A DNA stretch of 64,000 nucleotides from Cyanodermella asteris (lineage: Eukaryota > Ascomycota > Lecanoromycetes > Ostropales > Stictidaceae): NCBI GenBank assembly GCA_900618795.1, contig UYJD01000001.1, forward strand, positions 3,009,654-3,073,653, written 5' to 3'. The notes under the pieces were generated by a model, which worked only from the letters and a program-made list of their open reading frames with translations, was not told the origin of the DNA and made no database searches. Of this stretch, positions 7,537 to 28,219 are shown one piece after another (the stretch's first letter is position 1; each line of letters opens with the position of its first letter). A program made the translations under genes and the position numbers.

Positions 7537-9095
7537 ATGGCTTCAGCATCGGCTGAAAAAAGTACGTCTACCGTCCAATGCTTATGAGCTTGTGACTGAC
7601 TCACCCCGAAAGTTCCCGCTACGGTCAACGAAATGCCGAGTGAATCCTCATTGAAGAGTCCACTCGATCATGGCGAGACTATCGCTGAGGTTGAGCCTCA
7701 GTGCCCGTCGCATATCACGGAGAAGAAGCTCGTCGCCAAAATCGATCTCCGCTTGATTCCCATCCTCATGCTGGTGTACATTCTCGCCTTTCTCGACCGT
7801 GTCAACATCTCCAACGCTTTGACCCTGGGCATGCAAAAGGAGCTCAAACTCAACGATGTCACAGACCAGCAATCAAACATTGCGCTCGCCATCTTCTTCG
7901 TTCCATACGTCCTGCTCGAGATTCCATCCAACTGGCTACTCAAGAAATTCCGTCCAAATGTCTGGCTGTCAGGATGTATCACACTTTTCGGCATCTTCAT
8001 GCTTGCGCAAGGCTTCGTCAAGAGCTACGGAGCATTGTTGACCACGCGCTTCTTCCTCGGCCTCGCCGAAGCAGGAATCTTCCCAGGCTGTAAGTCGTCC
8101 CGTGAAGCAAGACAAAGAACCAGCCCACTGACCGATTCACAGGCTTCTACCTCATCAGCTTCTACTACAAGCGCAGCGAATCCCAAACACGCTTCACCTG
8201 GTTCTTCAACTCCGCCACCATCGCCAGCGCGTTCGGGTCCTTGATCGCCTCCGGCATCGCAACCATGGACGGTGCCCAGGGGCTCGCCTCCTGGCGCTGG
8301 ATCTTCATCATCGAGGGAACCCTGACAATCTTCTTCGGCATCCTCTCCTACTTCCTGATCGTCGACTTCCCCTCCACCGCCAAGTGGCTCCGCGAAGACG
8401 AGCGCGCCTACATCATGGCGCGCAACAGCATCGACCGCAACGTCGAAGCCGAGCCGATCACCGTGCGCAGCGTCGGCGCCTTCTTCACGCACGGCAAGAA
8501 GATCATGGGCGGCTTCATGTATTTCGGCACGTTGATCCCGCTGTACAGTTTCACGTACTTTGCCCCCACGATCGTCAAGCAGCTGAACCTGAGCACGGTG
8601 CAGACGCAGCTGCACACCGTCCCGCCGTTCGCCGCCGCAATCGTCTTTTCCATCCTGGTCAGCTGGCTGAGCGACAGGGCCGGCACGCGCTACCCCTTCC
8701 TGCTGTTCTGCACGCTGATGGTGGTCGCCGGCGTGGCGATGCTGCAGGGCATACACACGGGCTTCAGTGCCCGGTACGGCGCGCTGTTCCTCGTCATCAT
8801 GGGCGTCTTCAGTGCGGGTCCGCTGATCGTTTGCTGGTGCACGATGAACATGCGCGGCCACTTGGATCGTGCCGTGGGGACTGCGTGGATCATCGGCTTT
8901 GGCAACATTGGCGGGTTGATTGCGACGTTCACGCTGCCGGCCAGGGATGCGCCGTACTATCATAATGGGTACGCCATCTGCCAGGCGGGCGCTTGCTTTG
9001 GGCTTGCGACCGGTACCATCTACTACGTGTTGTGCCAGTTGGAGAACAGGAAGCTCAGGCAGAGGGGCAAGACGAACCACTTGTACCTGCTATAA
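7537..9095 (+). CDS. MFS transporter, anion:cation symporter (Dal5/allantoate permease-like) family
   Basis: Exons 7537-7561, 7613-8089 and 8143-9095 join in frame to 484 residues. The protein has a short hydrophilic N-terminus, then twelve predicted helices. The first helix ends in LAFLDRVNISNA, the form of the (Y/F)LDRxNI motif typical of the ACS family (Dal5 allantoate, Tna1 nicotinate, Vht1 biotin permeases). Also visible are LLEIPSNWLLKK, RFFLGLAEAGIFPG, FYYKRSESQTRFTWFF and ASWRWIFIIEG, all family landmarks. Such proteins import small organic anions or vitamins with protons across the plasma membrane; the substrate cannot be read from sequence. The start is fixed by a tiny 25 bp first exon whose GTACGT donor gives an in-frame join. 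A Zn2Cys6 regulator lies tail to tail 200 bp downstream, which may point to co-regulation but does not prove it. Confidence 0.92.
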
Positions 9096-9297
9096 GCCAT
9101 AGGTCGGTAATCTGGTTGCAGATCGCGGTCAGGTTCGTGCAGCGTTTGAATGGATAGAATTTGACTCGCGCAGTCATGAAATAGAGAGACCCAAAATGTG
9201 ATGCAGGCTTGCTAAATGAGTCGAGCCCTTGTGCTGCCATCCTTTTCTCGTCCAAAACGCCCGACTCCCTTCGTCAATCTTCAAGCAGATTTGCGCA

Positions 9298-12021
9298 TCA
9301 GAAACCCTCTCCCTGACCAGGCATCTGACCAAGCATCGCACCCGACATCTGATCCGGCATCTGGCCCATCATCTGCGGCGGCGGCATCTGACCCGACATC
9401 GACCCCGGCATCTGTATGGGATTAATCATACTCATATCGATCCCCATGGTCGCCGGATTATCCAAATCCGCAAACAACGAATCCCAACTCGTCGGCTCCA
9501 TCTGCTCGAAATTCGTCCCCTGATTCAGCCAATCCTGCCAAACATCGTCAAGCTGAAACGGCTGCGGCGTCGCTTGAGAAGCAGCATCGTTGATGGTGTC
9601 GTCTGGTACGGAAGCTTGATCCTGCAGCTGCCTGATGCTTCTGTCGTGCATCTGCACGTTGTGGTCGTTGGACGCCTCTGCGCCGGATACCTGTGGTCCG
9701 AGGTAGATCTTGTGCTTGCGCAGGACATCGGTCAGGGAAGCGAGGAATTTGGACGCCAGTGAGGATGTCGTTTTGGTGCTTTCGAGCGTCTTGCATGCGT
9801 AGATGACTTCTTGCCGCCGGACGTCTTCTTGGCCCTCCGCGCGCGTGAGACACAGATCCATGACGAGGACAATCGTAGCGACGAAAAGGTGATGCAGTAC
9901 GAACAGGTTCAGTGGGAGCTGCTTCTCGACAATCTCGTCGTTTTCTTCGTCGAGCTGTTGCTTCGCGTGCACGACCGCGCGTGCGGAGCGGATGCACGCC
10001 TCTCGTGAGTATCGATATCGTTCATCTTGGCCGCCGCGGACTAAGAATGGCTGGTGAAGCTTGCAACGACGCATATGCACGGCGATGCCGATGAGGTACT
10101 TTTGTATGATAAAGTAAGGATACTTGGCGGTGATTGGATGACTGCGTCGTCGGCTTTCGTCGTCGAGTCGGAAGAAGACTGGCATGTCGCGTAGGACCTC
10201 TTCGAATTTGGCGTCGATGGCGACTATCTCGCTGTAGTCGATGCTGTCGACGTTGGAGGACCCGATTGGCCAGGCATCTGAGATCATGCGGGCTAGTTCG
10301 GCGCTGCGGATGCGTAGGAGGAAGTAGGACATTTCGGTGGGGACGTCGAGGGGGTGGTCGAGCCAGGGCCCTTGTGTTTCGAGTTCTTCGTCAGTAACGT
10401 TTCGTGGTCGGTTAACAGCCATGTGCCGGGGTTGGACAAAGTAGGTTCCCTCTTGTGGTCCACCACTCACGCCGAGAAGCCTGTAGAGCTGTTAGTCAAG
10501 CGCCAAAACCTAGTGGTGAACATGTTGTTTCTTACCAGTCTGTAGAAGCGATATGCCACCATAGTCGTCTCTTGACTTCGACCACCACGTGACTTTCTTT
10601 TGCATTCTCCTCCCGACCGTCTGGACTGTCAATGCGATGCAGACACAGATCCCTCGCTATTGTCAGTGCCGATGCGTGCAGTGATCTTGCTCGTATCGAG
10701 AAGCCCTCAATGTTGAAGACTAAGAAGCAAAGCACAATACACATCATGACATCCTGCAGAGTACCGGTCCCAATACGGCGAGATATGCCAAGACAATCGA
10801 TTCCCTGCCGTAGCCAAAACTTGCAAATCTCGAAAGCTTCGTGCCGATGTGCAAAGAGACCATCTTTGTCGTCGTGGCAACTGCGGTGGCCAGCAACGCT
10901 AGCAAACGCCCCGTAGAGCAGACCGAGATAGCTTGCTTCGACCGCATCGCTTCCCGTGGGATTCGAGTACACCTCTTCCAGTACGCGACGTGCGTCCTTC
11001 ATGTACAAAACGTGGTGCGCGAAGTCGACGCTAATCTGAAACTCTTCAAGAAGCTGGATGGCTTGGTCTTTGGGCGGCAGCCAGAATAGTCGTCGAGGCT
11101 CCCAGGATGTGGAGTAACCAACAAATCCATCAATGGGAGCTCTGGCTCTTTCGAGGAGTTGGCTGATTGGACATATTCGTATAGTCATGCCGTAGCCTTC
11201 TGTGAAAAGCTACAACTATTAGCACGGAGCCGGGACAGCGAGATTGCGTTCCATCAGAGCTTATCAAATGCACGACCTACGCAAGATTGGCCTTCTCAAC
11301 CGCGTGGGCATGATAGCTGTTGCTGCAACAAGCTTGCCTCGATGATGTTCGATAGCTAGGTCAAGTGCGAAGTTACGTATATATAGAGGGTCCAGGAAAG
11401 TGGGGTCCACTTACAACTGATCTGTCCCGAGTTGCAAGCCCATACAGACGCAAAGAATCCGTCCTCAACGATTCCTCTTGCTCCGACTTGACCGAATCCA
11501 GCCCATACTCCAATGAAGTGGAGTCTGGAGACTGGCCATTACTGGGCGGCGTCGTCTTCGGTTCACTAGACGCTGCCGTCGATCTCTGAGTCAATAGTAG
11601 ACTCTCTATTCTATCTAGACGTGAGATGATTGAGTTGGAATCGATGGACACGCTCGTCAGTCTCGGTGTGGCGGCCGCGACTGCCGGTAACACTGCGTTG
11701 CCGAGGGTGCATGTCACGCCGCGAGCGAGGCAATTGGAACAGGGATGTTCTCGATTACATTTGAGCTTTTTTGTCCGGCAGAGTTGGCAGGAGACGGGAT
11801 CCTTGGGGCTTGTTAGTCAGGAATGTCCTTGTGGAGCTCATGCTGCTAAATAGCGAAATGATATCGCAATTGGAAACAGAATTCAAGATCGACAGCACAG
11901 ATGTGTGATATTGAAATCAACAGCTAACATGATCGCTTCGATGAGCTTCTCAAAAGGGCAAGTAACGCGAAGAGCTTACCTGACGTGGTCGAGCTGCTTT
12001 GGCTGTAGGAGCGACAGGCAT
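9298..12021 (-). CDS. Zn2Cys6 transcription factor with fungal-specific regulatory domain
   Basis: Proposed exons: 12021-11980, 11801-11415, 11355-11301, 11199-10536 and 10480-9298, total 776 residues. The first exon (MPVAPTAKAARPRQ) splices onto DPVSCQLCRTKKLKC, giving the zinc cluster with Cys at 19, 22, 29, 35, 38 and 45 (spacing 2-6-5-2-6). The middle carries the fungal transcription-factor homology domain: GFSIRARSLHASALTIARDL, VEVKRRLWWHIASTDW and GGPQEGTYFVQPRHM are family landmarks. The C-terminus is Met/Gln/Pro-rich. Four of the five exons are well supported. The 55 bp mini-exon at 11301-11355 uses a GTTGAG donor and is inferred, because joining its neighbours directly breaks the frame. 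The protein would act in the nucleus on CGG-type half sites. Its target is unknown; the adjacent transporter is a candidate. Confidence 0.85.
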
Positions 12022-22684: not shown

Positions 22685-22993
22685 CACGATAGTGTTATCG
22701 AAGTATAGTATGCAGTATCCAGGTGAGGCCGAAGATCTCTGGGACGTCAGGTTGGAATGTTGCTGGCGTTGTGGGATGGTGGAAATGCATCATGAAGCCG
22801 GCTCAAGCTCCGCAGGCAACTTTAGCTTCGTTCCGCTGTCCGACCAACACTCCGCCAGCTCTTCGCAACGATGCTCACAACCTCATGTAACACTCTGCGG
22901 CGAGCCCCACTGGCACAATGATTGAAAACCTCGTTCATTACATCCGAAGATGAGCAGTATCCTTTCTCCGGTCCAGGGACTCCGATAGCAGAT

Positions 22994-24679
22994 ATGCTAG
23001 AATCCACCCCCGTCGTTCGATTCGTACTTGGCTTGCGAGCTCAAGCTTTGTCGCTTGGAAGGCCAGATGGACATCGCACTGCATGCTTAGCGTATGGCAG
23101 CTACAGAACGGCCCAGCTTGAGCACTCAAACAAAGGCAGAACCTACCACACGTCTCTGCGTCATGGCCCGCCGGCTTCTAGCCTGCAGAGCTTCGCTCTG
23201 CGGGTAAAGACAAAACCAGGGACTGGAATCGTCGCTAGTACTACAGTATGGCCAACGCATGGCCGGCGATCCCAGTTGAATGTTGCGCAAACAAGATGCT
23301 ACGCGCAATCTTCCGAGACGGACGCACAGTTCGGAGAGATGACAGAGGAGCAATATCGGAAATCAAAAGAGCGGTTCCAGAAACTGAATGCAAAGTCTAT
23401 ACACCAGATATTCGGACCTGGAATGGATGTCAAGCGAGGCAATCAGCTCCTTAATACCGTCCAGAAACAACGGGTGACGGGCACGCTCGACATGAACATA
23501 TCAGGGCCAAGCGTTACCAAAGCTACCATCTCAAAGGCACTCGCATGGCTTCGGGATAAATACCCGCTCGACGAGGACGCCGCCATAATGGCACGGCTAG
23601 AGCGCGAAGAGGGGGCCATCAGCGACTGGATACCTCAGCAGAGCGCGGATCCCAAGAATGTTTGGGGAGAGTCAGAACTGGATCGTGTCAGGGCCAAGAA
23701 CATTGAAGAGCACAAGAAGAGGGAAGAAGCCGAGAAGGCCGAAGCAGAGGCCGAAGCAAAGCGGTTGGAGAAAGAAGGAGGTGGGAAATCTGGAACCCTG
23801 ACGACCAACCGCGTACGCAGCTTCAAAGAGCTGTCTCGCCCCCGAGAAACGAGAGCTTGGGTAGAGAAATACAGGGCGAAGGCGAAGCTTTCGGAGGACG
23901 ATGCGCCCCCTACGCCGCAGCCAGCTCGTCTGTTGCTATTAGGTGGGCTCTTTACAGGAGCCGTGGTAGTTTTGTGCGTTGCGGTCGCTGCCGAATACGA
24001 ACCACCGCCAAGGTCGGCACGAATGTTCCCAGAGATACCTCCAGCTGCAGCCACGATAGGCGGACTGATTGCTGTCAACGCCGTATTTTGGCTCGCGTGG
24101 AAGTTGCCATTCATGTGGAGGATGATGAATCTCGACATGCTGATGATCCCGGCAACTTTCCATCCGATTTCGTTGTTGGGCAACGTGTTCAGCCATCAGC
24201 ACTTCTACCATCTGGCGCTAAACATGACTTGCCTGTGGTTCATTGGCACGAACCTGCATGATGAGATCGGTCGCGGCAGATTCCTGGCCATCTACGTCGC
24301 AAGTGGCGTGCTCGGCTCATACGCCTCGCTCCTGAGATTTGTGCTCATGAAGAACTACACCTTTACGACTCTCGGCGCCAGTGGAGCGCTCTTTGGAGTC
24401 ATTGGAGCGTTCTGCACTTTGTACCCAGACAGGCTCATCAGCATTGCATTCTTTCCCGAGGAGTGGAAGAGGTGGTTCTGCATTCGAGCTGACTGGTGTT
24501 TCTTTTTCCTATTCGCCATGGAGCTCGCAAACATTGTTCGACGATCTTTCAGCGTCGATCATGTCGCACATTTTGGAGGCCTGTTAGGCGGAGCATTTGG
24601 TGCTGAAGCACTCCGTCGTCAGGCTCGCGCAAAGAGGAAACGTTTCATTGAGCCCGGTCCGACGCCGCGCGTGTCATGA
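22994..24679 (+). CDS. Mitochondrial rhomboid serine protease (Pcp1/Rbd1-like)
   Basis: One open exon of 561 residues from the first in-frame ATG. The start is uncertain: the frame is open to 22922 but without an ATG. The N-terminus is Arg/Ser-rich, as expected for a mitochondrial presequence. Residues of about 120-310 contain a Glu/Lys-rich predicted coiled coil. The rhomboid core follows with FSHQHFYHLALNMTCLWFIG, the catalytic serine in TLGASGALFG (about residue 463) and the catalytic histidine in DHVAHFGGLLGG (about residue 525). A Pcp1-type protease cleaves Mgm1/OPA1 and Ccp1 in the mitochondrial inner membrane. It lies 500 bp from the peptide-precursor gene, but a mitochondrial protease is not expected to process that product. 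Confidence 0.88.
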   Translation: MLESTPVVRFVLGLRAQALSLGRPDGHRTACLAYGSYRTAQLEHSNKGRTYHTSLRHGPPASSLQSFALRVKTKPGTGIVASTTVWPTHGRRSQLNVAQTRCYAQSSETDAQFGEMTEEQYRKSKERFQKLNAKSIHQIFGPGMDVKRGNQLLNTVQKQRVTGTLDMNISGPSVTKATISKALAWLRDKYPLDEDAAIMARLEREEGAISDWIPQQSADPKNVWGESELDRVRAKNIEEHKKREEAEKAEAEAEAKRLEKEGGGKSGTLTTNRVRSFKELSRPRETRAWVEKYRAKAKLSEDDAPPTPQPARLLLLGGLFTGAVVVLCVAVAAEYEPPPRSARMFPEIPPAAATIGGLIAVNAVFWLAWKLPFMWRMMNLDMLMIPATFHPISLLGNVFSHQHFYHLALNMTCLWFIGTNLHDEIGRGRFLAIYVASGVLGSYASLLRFVLMKNYTFTTLGASGALFGVIGAFCTLYPDRLISIAFFPEEWKRWFCIRADWCFFFLFAMELANIVRRSFSVDHVAHFGGLLGGAFGAEALRRQARAKRKRFIEPGPTPRVS

Positions 24680-25186: not shown

Positions 25187-26038
25187 TTAACCGCCAACGT
25201 TGTAGCAGCCTAGCAAGATACCAGTATTGAATCAGAAACGACTCCGGGCATGTACGGAGACTCACCATAGATGCTGCAGACACAGAAACCGGAACAGCCA
25301 CCGTCAATGAATTGGCGCTTGTGAACGTCGGCCGTGGTAGCATCGACAGTCTTGTTGGGGGCACCGGCAATCTTCTTGGAGCCGACGTTGTAGCAACCTT
25401 GAAAACTGATCAGTTTTTGTTTCGAGACGAAGCAAGGGACGAAGCTGGGATCACCGTAAATGCTGCAAACGCAGAAACCAGAGCAACCGCCGTCGATGAA
25501 CTGACGCTTGGCGACGGCAGTAGGCGCGGCGGTGGTGACATTGGCGGCCTTGTCGTTGATGTTGTAGCAGCCTGTGGACTCGTTAGTCTCTGAGCGGAGA
25601 GTACTGGTTGAGCTTGGAACAGACCATAGATGCTGCAAACACAGAAACCGGAGCAGCCGCCATCACTGAACTGGCGTTTGGCAAGGGCGGACTCATCAGC
25701 TGAGGCCTGAGCGGCAAGCTCGGCGCTCAAAGCGAGGACGTTGTCATCGGAGCGCTTGTCGCTGACGTTGTAACATCCTTTGTTATTGTCAGCATGTTGT
25801 CTAAGGATGCGAGGGCTGAGGTGCAAACCAACCGTAAATGCTGCAAACACAGAAGCCGGAGCAGCCACCATCAATGAACTGGCGGGCCTCAATCTCGGAA
25901 CCGCTGGACTTGGCGACCTCGTAAGGGGCAGCGAAGGTGGCAACGACCAGGCTGAAAGCCGCGAAGAGAGAGGCTTGAAGGGGTCAGTAATCTTTGTCAA
26001 GGAGTCGAGGAGACTATTTGCTCACAGAAAGCAACCAT
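25187..26038 (-). CDS. Secreted Kex2-processed repeat precursor with four Cys-rich peptide units
   Basis: Six exons (26038-26026, 25973-25833, 25777-25625, 25571-25455, 25397-25266, 25209-25187) join in frame to 192 residues. Residues 1-20 (MVAFSSLFAAFSLVVATFAA) are a signal peptide. A short pro-region ends EIEAR at 35. Four units follow: QFIDGGCSGFCVCSIYG|CYNV at 36-56, the same with Ser for Ile at 87-107, and again with Ile at 126-146 and 170-190, the last followed only by GG and the stop. Units 2-4 each follow Lys-Arg, the Kex2 site. Each unit has four cysteines (C-x3-C-x-C-x4-C). Each intron (53-57 bp) interrupts the unit's last Gly codon in phase 1. Linkers are Ala/Asp/Thr-rich, two with N-x-T sequons. 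Predicted product: secreted peptides of about 21-24 residues. Family unknown; function (toxin, antimicrobial, effector, signal or RiPP core) cannot be told from sequence. No UstY-like oxidase is seen nearby. Confidence 0.85.
25195..25881 (-). repeat. Four intron-split repeats encoding the mature peptide cores
   Basis: The first 16 residues of each unit (Q to Tyr) are encoded at 25881-25834, 25673-25626, 25503-25456 and 25314-25267. Each is followed by one base of the Gly codon, an intron, and then the (G)CYN part in the next exon. Units 1 and 4 differ at seven third positions with no amino acid change. Units 1 and 3 also differ only synonymously. Unit 2 has the single replacement Ile to Ser. 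The introns share only splice signals. Confidence 0.9.
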
Positions 26039-26192: not shown

Positions 26193-26198
26193 TTTATA
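26193..26198 (-). promoter_or_regulatory. TATA box candidate of the peptide-precursor gene
   Basis: TATAAA on the minus strand lies about 155 bases upstream of the precursor's start codon, the only good TATA match in that interval. The distance leaves room for a leader of about 100 bases. Based on position and sequence only. Confidence 0.5.
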
Positions 26199-26762: not shown

Positions 26763-27497
26763 TTAGACGAAGCCAATCAAGCGTTGTCCCGTGAGGATAC
26801 CACCGACACTTCTCTGAACTGCCCCAAACTTCACGAAGCGGCAGCTTTCGCTCTCCAGATGGTTGAATAGCATGGCCAGTCCGGCAAACTCCTTAGCACA
26901 CTTATGGTTGGGACAATGATACAATTTGCGAGCGTGGACTGGCGACTCGAGGTGTTGACGGAGACTCTGTGAGCTACGGTAGCTGCGGTGGCAGATGAAG
27001 CACTCAAAGCCAGAGCCATTCCAGGCATTCCTCAAATCCCAGCCGACGACAGTCGGAGTCGAATCGTCGTCGTGCCAGCCGATTTGCTTTTGGGTGATGA
27101 AGCCGTTGGGATCGATGCCTCGAACCAGGCGATGCAGAGCTTCTCGGTTCATGTTCGGGGCGCGGGGACAGGATCCGGTCTCCAAATGGTGCGAGACGCC
27201 GCTTGTGGTGGCGAAGCCGCGTTTGCAAAAGGGGCACCCGATGTTGGTACCTTGATGGATGCTAGACTTCAGGTGCTGTCGATTGTGGGCATTCGGTATC
27301 TCGAGTGATGGCCGTGCATAGATCGAATAACTTACCTGATCGAGACTGTTTCCATTCATGAAATTACGATCACATGGCTCGCAATAAGTGCGGAAGTGTT
27401 TGAGAGCTTTCATATGTTGGAAACGAGCATAGTAGCTGTTGAAGACTTTGACACATGTCTCGCACTCGAGGTCATCACCAAAAGCATCGAAGCCCAT
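26763..27497 (-). CDS. C2H2-type multi-zinc-finger protein
   Basis: Exons 27497-27336 and 27275-26763 give 224 residues. Five finger-like units are visible in order: CETCVKVFNSYYARFQHMKA, CEPCDRNFMNGNSLDQ|HLKSSIH (completed by splicing), CPFCKRGFATTSGVSHHLET, CFICHRSYRSSQSLRQHLES and CPNHKCAKEFAGLAMLFNHL. The last and the third end in Cys rather than a second His. The 60 bp intron (GTAAGT...CGACAG) is a multiple of three with no stop, so the unspliced frame is also open, but only splicing restores the second finger. This pattern (QHLxSPxH, HLESxSC) recurs in a fungus-specific group of uncharacterised proteins. DNA or RNA binding is likely; the target is unknown. It is the nearest upstream neighbour of the peptide-precursor gene. 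Confidence 0.85.
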   Translation of the reverse strand: MGFDAFGDDLECETCVKVFNSYYARFQHMKALKHFRTYCEPCDRNFMNGNSLDQVSYSIYARPSLEIPNAHNRQHLKSSIHQGTNIGCPFCKRGFATTSGVSHHLETGSCPRAPNMNREALHRLVRGIDPNGFITQKQIGWHDDDSTPTVVGWDLRNAWNGSGFECFICHRSYRSSQSLRQHLESPVHARKLYHCPNHKCAKEFAGLAMLFNHLESESCRFVKFGAVQRSVGGILTGQRLIGFV

Positions 27498-28219
27498 GTT
27501 GAATGCAGAGGAGAGAATGATCCCGCTGATAGAGAGAGGAAGAAGACGACGAGGCTACTGGCAAAGAGAGGAGTCGTTTACTGGCAGACGAACCGGGGAG
27601 TGGTTTGTTCAGCAAACATTTAGGTGACTGCCGCTCGCACGGACCTCAGGAAAGGGCGAACGACAGGGAGAACCGTTGCCAGATCAGTCAAAGCACGGAA
27701 GCTTAGAGCTGGTGAGCTCCAACAGGCTGGCTCAGGGCCTCATTCGGATCAGGGAGAATTCTAAATGGGTACAGACATGGAAGCCAAGATTCGAGGCTCG
27801 GTCACGTGAATTTCTGACCTCAGTGATAACCTTTAAACTATACAGGTAAACAGCATACGTGAGCACAAGAGCAAATTACACCAGCACTATGGAGAAGTTT
27901 GCTCGCCTCTCATCGTAGTCTTTCCGCGTTGTTGAGTCTGTACGTGCGATTGGCATTTACGGGTGAGCACAGGACTTAGCGCCGCGATTGCGGGCTCCAC
28001 CGGGTTTTCCCAGATAACGTAACGCCGCGTGAGCCATGATAATGTACTTACACGAGTTTGGGCTTCGGAAGCGCATGCGGACTGTACCAGCAGATCTTTG
28101 GCAATCAATCAACACCTGGGGTGGACCTTGTATTGAATTTATGCTAATCAGCATGTACGCAAAGGATATCAGATCAGGAATCCTTCCTGTGGTTTTCCTT
28201 GACGCACGATAACACCGCT
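27498..28219. other. Spacer with no gene seen
   Basis: Upstream of the zinc-finger gene and downstream of the cupin-like gene. Short overlapping frames only. Confidence 0.45.

What the first reader, a model, noticed from the sequence alone, without database searches (positions are those of the whole stretch)
25187..26038. Secreted precursor with four near-identical four-cysteine peptides released by Kex2-type cleavage
The joined exons give a signal peptide, a pro-region and four copies of QF[I/S]DGGCSGFCVCSIYG+CYN, three of them directly after Lys-Arg. This is the plan of fungal Kex2-processed repeat proteins (KEPs), a group that includes dikaritin RiPP precursors, repellents, Ece1 and alpha-pheromones. 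The core (C-x3-C-x-C-x4-C, about 21-24 residues, N-terminal Gln able to cyclise) matches none of the named cores I know. It may be a disulfide-rich toxin, antimicrobial, effector or signal, or a modified RiPP.
Basis: partly seen in the sequence, partly recalled or inferred. Interest (0 to 1): 0.92.

Follow-up and report, generated by a model that had tools for sequence, protein, structure and literature searches.

The report
Fungal precursor of four cysteine peptides
A filamentous fungus carries a gene whose secreted product appears to be cut into four nearly identical small cysteine-rich peptides unlike any we could find, which makes it a good candidate for an unknown fungal signal or secreted weapon, built on an already known precursor plan.

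Summary
On the minus strand, 26038-25187, a six-exon gene encodes 192 aa: a signal-like N-terminus and four copies of QF[I/S]DGGCSGFCVCSIYGCYN. All five introns are 52-57 nt, phase 1, with a CTRAY branch motif. Each core is split by an intron in the same Gly codon, so the internal exons are symmetric cassettes. The copies differ by at least 16 nucleotide changes, one of which changes an amino acid (simple neutral simulation 0 of 20,000).

A correction: dibasic sites bracket the copies less fully than claimed. Lys-Arg precedes copies 2-4; copy 1 follows Ala-Arg. At residue 24 stand KR, KA, KK and, in copy 4, the stop, which suggests an ancestral 23-residue peptide.

The gene meets the published KEP screening criteria, except that the signal peptide was judged only by hydropathy. 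A dikaritin RiPP is unlikely: the nearest UstYa match on the contig is about 221 kb away. No relative was found in the collections searched, a weak negative. The genome has one Ste2 receptor gene, and three alpha-pheromone patterns plus one widened version gave nothing credible, so a non-canonical mating pheromone remains possible. Most likely it is an orphan KEP giving disulfide-bonded secreted peptides.

The parts
26026..26038 (-). Exon 1 (13 nt): start codon in a CACCATGG context, MVAF
   Evidence: context read
25974..26025 (-). Intron 1, 52 nt, phase 1, GTGAGC...CTGAC...AAG
25833..25973 (-). Exon 2 (141 nt): rest of the signal-like stretch (hydrophobic run aa 1-21), short pro-region APYEVAKSSGSEIEAR, first part of core copy 1 (cysteines 1-3)
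25778..25832 (-). Intron 2, 55 nt, phase 1, splits the Gly codon before Cys4 of copy 1
25625..25777 (-). Exon 3 (153 nt): end of copy 1 (GCYNVSD-KR), 24-residue acidic Ala-rich spacer followed by KR, first part of copy 2 (the Ser variant)
25572..25624 (-). Intron 3, 53 nt, phase 1, same Gly codon in copy 2
25455..25571 (-). Exon 4 (117 nt): end of copy 2 (GCYNIND-KA), spacer with NVT sequon ending AKR, first part of copy 3
25398..25454 (-). Intron 4, 57 nt, phase 1, same Gly codon in copy 3; in frame, no stop, weak donor GTGATC (if retained it inserts 19 residues into the core)
25266..25397 (-). Exon 5 (132 nt): end of copy 3 (GCYNVGS-KK), spacer with NKT sequon ending HKR, first part of copy 4
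25210..25265 (-). Intron 5, 56 nt, phase 1, same Gly codon in copy 4
25187..25209 (-). Exon 6 (23 nt): end of copy 4, CYNVGG and stop, so that copy 4 ends exactly 23 residues from its Gln
26193..26198 (-). TATAAA motif 160 nt before the ATG, followed by a pyrimidine-rich leader (possible promoter; consensus only)

Best explanation
The gene is a KEX2-processed repeat protein. The signal peptide takes the precursor into the secretory pathway (inferred). Kex2 cuts after Lys-Arg in the Golgi, and a Kex1-type carboxypeptidase removes the basic residues (inferred; a gene with the Kex2-type P domain is in the genome, Kex1 was not looked for). The main products are peptides of about 23 residues beginning Gln-Phe, whose Gln can cyclise to pyroglutamate. 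Their four cysteines (C-x3-C-x-C-x4-C) most likely form two disulfides, probably 1-3/2-4 or 1-2/3-4 because a C-x-C disulfide is strained (inference). Copy 2, and partly copy 3, would come out with C-terminal tails because their downstream dibasic reads KA or KK. Four almost identical copies multiply the dose of one ligand rather than making a mixture. I think a secreted signal or an interaction peptide (to the same species or to a host or competitor) is most likely. Each cassette is a symmetric phase 1-1 exon with the intron inside the core, so duplicating or skipping a cassette keeps the frame and rebuilds a complete core. Shown: the gene model on sequence, the repeat, constraint on the core, KEP criteria apart from SignalP. 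Inferred: splicing, secretion, cleavage, disulfides, function.
For: Gene model, five phase-1 introns, four symmetric internal exons. CTRAY in 5 of 5 introns, shuffle product 2.6e-5. At least sixteen nucleotide changes and one amino-acid change among copies, 0 of 20,000 simulations. In-silico cleavage at KR gives 5 fragments, 4 with the core; the core makes up 42% of the protein; these meet the criteria in PMC6339444 and PMC7329392. Residue 24 onward reads KR, KA, KK, stop in copies 1-4, with all four 23-mers in register. One gene with a P_proprotein domain, 103.5 bits in a 918-residue open frame (its peptidase domain was not checked).
Against: No transcript or peptide. No second species shows the gene, so constraint is measured only between copies, and the simulation is a simple one (even placement of changes). 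Gene conversion of cores could contribute: introns 2-5 are 57-65% identical in pairs, and shuffles reach the observed alignment score in 0, 4, 7, 8, 31 and 85 of 300 cases for the six pairs, so a trace of common origin remains. The 26-residue fragment between copies 1 and 2 has no core. Copy 1 lacks a dibasic before it; copies 2 and 3 lack KR after them. Donors of introns 2-4 are weaker than those of introns 1 and 5, and the introns were placed by hand.
Confidence: 0.8

Rival explanations
1. The peptides are a non-canonical alpha-type mating pheromone, the ligand of this fungus's own Ste2 receptor. (Compatible with the KEP plan; a rival as to function.)
For: The precursor plan is that of MF-alpha. 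One STE2 match, 272.7 bits, with one stop inside the matched stretch that fits an intron read by eye. Pattern searches of the genome at zero mismatches for three alpha-pheromone core types, one of them also widened, gave no credible precursor: C-x-phi-P-G-Q-G-C 0 hits; W-C-x3-G-Q-x-C 5 hits, reversed control 1, none in a repeated KR context; P-Y-G-phi-P-phi-G 1 hit, control 0, inside a frame that looks by eye like a fungal rhodopsin-type membrane protein; widened form 22 hits, reversed control 19, none near another. Length 23 falls in the 9-24 aa class of known alpha-pheromones (PMC6339444 section 6).
Against: No known alpha-pheromone motif in the core, no MF_alpha match in Pfam, no STE13 dipeptide (XA or XP) after KR, four cysteines where PMC6339444 describes alpha-pheromones with two (or the PYG type), an intron inside every core. 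Patterns at zero mismatches can miss a divergent or intron-split true pheromone.
Confidence: 0.12
2. A dikaritin-type RiPP: UstYa oxidases crosslink the Tyr, Phe or Ile residues of the core.
For: KEP plan; two Tyr and two Phe per core; the genome is rich in UstYa (73 matched stretches at E up to 0.01, 66 of them marked over the cut-off). In PMC7329392 22% of KEPs have a DUF3328 (UstYa) gene nearby (abstract; section 7).
Against: None of the 73 stretches lies in the window; the nearest on the contig begins at C15:3256362, about 221 kb away. 19 neighbouring ORF stretches scanned with Pfam give ordinary families and no tyrosinase. Cores of ustiloxin and phomopsin are four residues long, YAIG/YVIG/YVIP (PMC7329392 passages).
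Confidence: 0.05
3. A repeat protein that acts whole, or as long fragments, for example on the cell wall, with the KR sites only partly used.
For: Copy 1 lacks a dibasic before it, copies 2 and 3 carry 14- and 19-residue tails with N-glycosylation sequons.
Against: KR stands directly before Gln in 3 of 4 copies and the register of KR/KA/KK/stop at residue 24 fits excised 23-mers. Spacers differ from one another whereas cores do not.
Confidence: 0.1
4. A secreted antimicrobial or host-directed peptide (toxin or effector). (Compatible with the KEP plan; a rival as to function.)
For: Small, cysteine-rich, probably secreted, no relatives found on present searches. A GxC-x3-C motif recalls a defensin gamma-core (recalled).
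Against: All 23-mers are anionic, -1 to -2; copies are kept nearly identical rather than diversified; no defensin match; the cysteine pattern is not CS-alpha-beta (pattern recalled). The host and lifestyle of the fungus are unknown.
Confidence: 0.3

Closest known systems
KEX2-processed repeat proteins (KEPs; Le Marquer 2019 PMC6339444, Umemura 2020 PMC7329392)
   Same: Signal-like N-terminus, at least three near-identical motifs set off by KR, core 42% of the protein; orphan status is common there (2560 of 7878 KEPs had no homologue, PMC7329392 section 6).
   Different: Four cysteines per core, and a phase-1 intron inside every core. In the main texts 'intron' occurs 0 times in PMC7329392 and PMC6339444 and once, about cDNA, in PMC9769878; 'cysteine' occurs 0 times in PMC7329392 and PMC9769878 and, in PMC6339444, only about two-cysteine alpha-pheromones and one two-cysteine basidiomycete KEP (plus the abbreviations). 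Tables of KEP sequences in the supplements could not be read, so cysteine-rich or intron-bearing KEPs may be listed there.
Ascomycete alpha-pheromone precursors
   Same: Precursor plan, peptide length class, Kex2 sites; Ste2 match in the genome.
   Different: No known core motif, four cysteines, no STE13 dipeptides.
Dikaritins (ustiloxin, phomopsin, asperipin) and epichloecyclins
   Same: Kex2-processed multi-copy precursor.
   Different: No UstYa match within 220 kb; long four-cysteine core.
U. maydis Rep1 repellents
   Same: Multi-copy Kex2 peptides secreted by a filamentous fungus.
   Different: Rep1 peptides form amyloid-like fibrils on hyphae (PMC8528282 passage); the present cores are short and cysteine-rich. 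No sequence comparison was made.

Membership tests
KEP | N-terminal secretion signal | tested here: inconclusive
   Hydropathy run aa 1-21, no later 11-residue window above the same threshold, plausible cut near TFA|APY by eye. SignalP not available.
KEP | At least four fragments on cutting at KR/RR, at least three of one pattern | tested here: met
   Five fragments, four contain the core, three of them before the C-terminal one; rule in PMC6339444. Similarity judged by eye, not with the authors' script.
KEP | Repeats at least 15% of protein; a repeat of 8 aa or more and no separated stretch over 100 aa | tested here: met
   42% of 192 aa, longest fragment 44 aa; rules.
KEP | Cleavage by Kex2 in the cell | not testable with these tools
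   Only one P_proprotein match in a 918-residue frame was shown.
Dikaritin RiPP | UstYa (DUF3328) gene close to the precursor gene | tested here: not met
   73 stretches in the genome, none in the window, nearest on the contig about 221 kb away.
Dikaritin RiPP | Tyrosine-containing core | tested here: met
   Two Tyr in each core. Weak criterion: 38.2% of repeats of KEPs without DUF3328 also hold Tyr (PMC7329392).
Ascomycete alpha-pheromone | Known core motif (WCxxxGQxC, recalled; CHLPGQGC and PYGxPxG) or MF_alpha domain | tested here: not met
   By inspection of the core; no such Pfam match.
Ascomycete alpha-pheromone | STE13 signature (XA or XP after KR) | tested here: not met
   QF after three KR sites, SD after the fourth. 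PMC6339444 says the signature is generally only found with alpha-pheromones, not that every one has it.
Ascomycete alpha-pheromone | Activates Ste2 | not testable with these tools
   Receptor match present; binding not testable.
CS-alpha-beta defensin | CxxxC ... GxC ... CxC pattern of at least six cysteines in one domain (recalled) | tested here: not met
   Four cysteines, C-x3-C-x-C-x4-C; no defensin match in Pfam at E up to 1.
Fungal metallothionein | Many CxC motifs, no aromatic residues, cytosolic (recalled) | tested here: not met
   One CxC and four aromatic residues per 23-mer, signal-like N-terminus.

The most novel reading that the evidence does not exclude
The precursor encodes the mating pheromone of this lineage: a four-cysteine, disulfide-locked alpha-type ligand of Ste2 that has replaced the canonical alpha-pheromone, carried on symmetric exon cassettes whose splicing or duplication can change peptide dose.
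Probability: 0.1. Interest if true: 0.8.

Novelty: new member of a known kind. Interest (0 to 1): 0.5.

Why it matters
The functions of KEP-derived peptides are largely unknown (abstract start of PMC9769878). This one offers exact targets: four predicted 23-residue peptides with stated masses, a core held almost unchanged between copies, one Kex2-type gene and a Ste2 receptor whose usual ligand was not found. If it is a signal, it would add a disulfide-locked peptide to fungal signalling. If it is a mating ligand, it would show replacement of a pheromone otherwise of recognisable type. The exon cassette design is a simple way to change peptide copy number without breaking the frame.

Tried and rejected
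Homologues: precursor (192 aa) against 5.8 billion proteins (candidates of 0.55-1.75 times its length), 1613 candidates, none at E up to 10. A shortened 83-aa two-copy query: no candidate with three shared words. Control with the neighbouring rhomboid gene: 56 proteins at E up to 1e-10 among the 8000 candidates scored, best 59% and 56% without names (sources lgn and jgi), best named 42%. So fungi are in the collection but near named relatives of this fungus did not appear, and the missing homologue says little for a gene that may evolve fast. PDB: none at E up to 10. Pfam: only matches under the cut-off (Romo1 E 0.0023, 18.7 bits against 27.6; GP7; HIG_1_N), rejected as compositional. A 67-aa two-copy piece against viral contigs (28 pattern matches) and bacterial/archaeal contigs (284): none confirmed. 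Paralogues: only the gene itself; two further weak matches at E 0.115 and 0.276 and four 3-mismatch pattern matches elsewhere (reversed control 5 in all) were read by eye and rejected.

alpha-pheromone gene elsewhere: four patterns, no repeated KR-flanked peptide around any of the 23 distinct hits (contexts judged by eye). 5.8S rRNA search to place the organism: no match, so the species is unknown; an ascomycete is inferred from the names. tRNA scan of the window: none. Papers: no paper of the library holds any of three core strings; searches for cysteine-rich or intron-bearing Kex2 repeat precursors and related terms listed nothing matching in the titles and abstract starts shown, apart from the KEP papers used here.

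Full report
What is there. The window is one stretch of a 28.5-Mb genome in 25 contigs, fungal by its genes (fungal rhodopsin, Zn2Cys6, PMT; an EF3-like frame, named from recall). The finding lies between a rhomboid gene (+ strand, ending 24679) and a C2H2 zinc-finger frame (- strand, 26763-27554). Reading the minus strand from 26038 to 25187 and joining six exons gives a 192-residue protein with four copies of QF[I/S]DGGCSGFCVCSIYGCYN at residues 36, 87, 126 and 170.

Why the gene model is believed. The pieces that carry the cores lie in three reading frames, so splicing is needed to link them; only copy 3 is also open through its intron. The introns were placed by hand. All five are 52-57 nt, GT...AG, phase 1, with CTRAY starting 14-16 nt (introns 1-4) or 26 nt (intron 5) before the acceptor end. 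Shuffles of the same introns put CTRAY in that region in 9-15% of cases each, product 2.6e-5. Introns 1 and 5 have strong donors (GTGAGC, GTGAGT); those of introns 2-4 are weaker (GTTGGT, GTCTGT, GTGATC). Intron 4 is 57 nt, in frame and free of stops, so a retained form is possible. The ATG has a CACCATGG context and a TATAAA lies 160 nt before it; these are consensus matches only.

Cassette structure. In every copy the intron falls in the same Gly codon, between Cys3 and Cys4. The four internal exons are 141, 153, 117 and 132 nt, all multiples of three and bounded by phase-1 introns. A cassette can therefore be duplicated, lost or skipped without a frame shift, and the remaining exons still rebuild a full core. 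This is a direct reading of the sequence; that the fungus uses it is not shown.

Constraint. The four cores differ at 15 nucleotide columns, 14 of them third codon positions, at least 16 changes in all; 14 of 20 codons vary and one changes the amino acid. Even random placement of 16 changes gives on average about 9 changed amino-acid positions; 0 of 20,000 runs gave one or fewer, at each of three transition biases. Introns 2-5 are 57-65% identical in pairs; the alignment score is reached by 0, 4, 7, 8, 31 and 85 of 300 shuffles in the six pairs, so common descent of the introns is faintly visible while the cores stay fixed. Gene conversion limited to cores is not excluded, but would not by itself leave almost only synonymous differences.

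Processing. Lys-Arg stands directly before copies 2, 3 and 4; copy 1 follows Ala-Arg. Counting from Gln, residues 24-25 are KR in copy 1, KA in copy 2 and KK in copy 3, and copy 4 ends at residue 23. The register suggests an ancestral unit KR-23mer-KR-spacer, with the second site changed in copies 2 and 3 (inference). Cutting at KR alone gives fragments of 41, 26, 39, 44 and 23 residues including the basic residues. The tails of copies 2 and 3 carry N-glycosylation sequons at residues 113 and 156, and copy 1 has one at 55. One gene with the Kex2-type P domain is in the genome.

What it is not. No Pfam family reaches its cut-off. No UstYa match lies in the window although the genome has 73 matched stretches (66 marked over the cut-off); the nearest on the contig is about 221 kb off. 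In PMC7329392, 1758 of 7878 KEPs had such a gene among the 15 closest genes, at 3.09 genes on average (section 7), so most KEPs lack one. The 19 neighbouring ORF stretches scanned (of 131 mechanical ORFs listed) show ordinary families: fungal rhodopsin, MFS, Zn2Cys6, PEMT, nucleoside hydrolase, Mod(r), rhomboid, zinc finger, SDR, F-box, Etd1-like, kinase, PMT, with five stretches giving no family above its cut-off. The dikaritin reading is therefore weak.

Mating pheromone. The genome has one STE2 match, 272.7 bits, with one stop inside the matched stretch; by eye the DNA shows an open frame with one likely intron. Pattern searches for three alpha-pheromone core types (one of them also widened) found nothing credible: the widest gave 22 places against 19 for the reversed pattern, none near another. 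Either the true pheromone is divergent or split by introns, or the present gene is a candidate. It lacks the STE13 dipeptides and any known motif, so I give this about 0.1.

Relatives. None in the protein collection, PDB, viral contigs, bacterial and archaeal contigs, or the same genome. No collection of fungal genome DNA other than the window's own genome was searched. The control with the rhomboid neighbour shows that fungal proteins are held but that the best named match is only 42% identical. The absence is therefore weak evidence of novelty. In PMC7329392, 2560 of 7878 KEPs were orphans (section 6), so an orphan KEP is ordinary in that sense.

Papers. Passages of PMC7329392, PMC6339444, PMC9769878, PMC8329847, PMC6374014 and PMC8528282, sections 5, 6 (part 1 of 2) and 7 of PMC7329392, and the outline and sections 6 and 24 of PMC6339444 were seen; other papers only as search listings. 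No supplement was read.

Verdict. A well-formed gene on sequence evidence and a new orphan member of the KEP kind, with a four-cysteine core. The best reading is a secreted disulfide peptide used as a signal or in interaction with other organisms; which of these cannot be told from sequence.

Noticed in passing
G000, 73 stretches on many contigs: The genome is rich in UstYa (DUF3328) matches, with groups for example on C7, C17, C18 and C19, which suggests several dikaritin-type clusters elsewhere.
   Followed up: no
L047 1468-2586: One STE2-type pheromone receptor gene that looks intact by eye with a single intron (the search counts one stop inside), while no canonical alpha-pheromone was found by pattern.
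   Followed up: partly
window 25398-25454: Intron 4 is in frame, without stops and with a weak donor; its retention would insert 19 residues, including an extra Cys, into copy 3.
   Followed up: no
window 7600-11816: An MFS transporter gene next to, and pointing towards, a gene for a Zn2Cys6 transcription factor; possibly a small transport regulon.
   Followed up: no
L059 around 1501-1527: A short frame starting MVVPTTCCGRSGQSCVCAQKV, a possible small cysteine-rich protein start that came up as a chance match to the widened pheromone pattern.
   Followed up: no
window 22922-24679: The rhomboid neighbour's best named match is only 42% identical (lichen-associated fungi, from recall of the names), so the organism seems to belong to a thinly sampled lineage in that collection.
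   Followed up: partly
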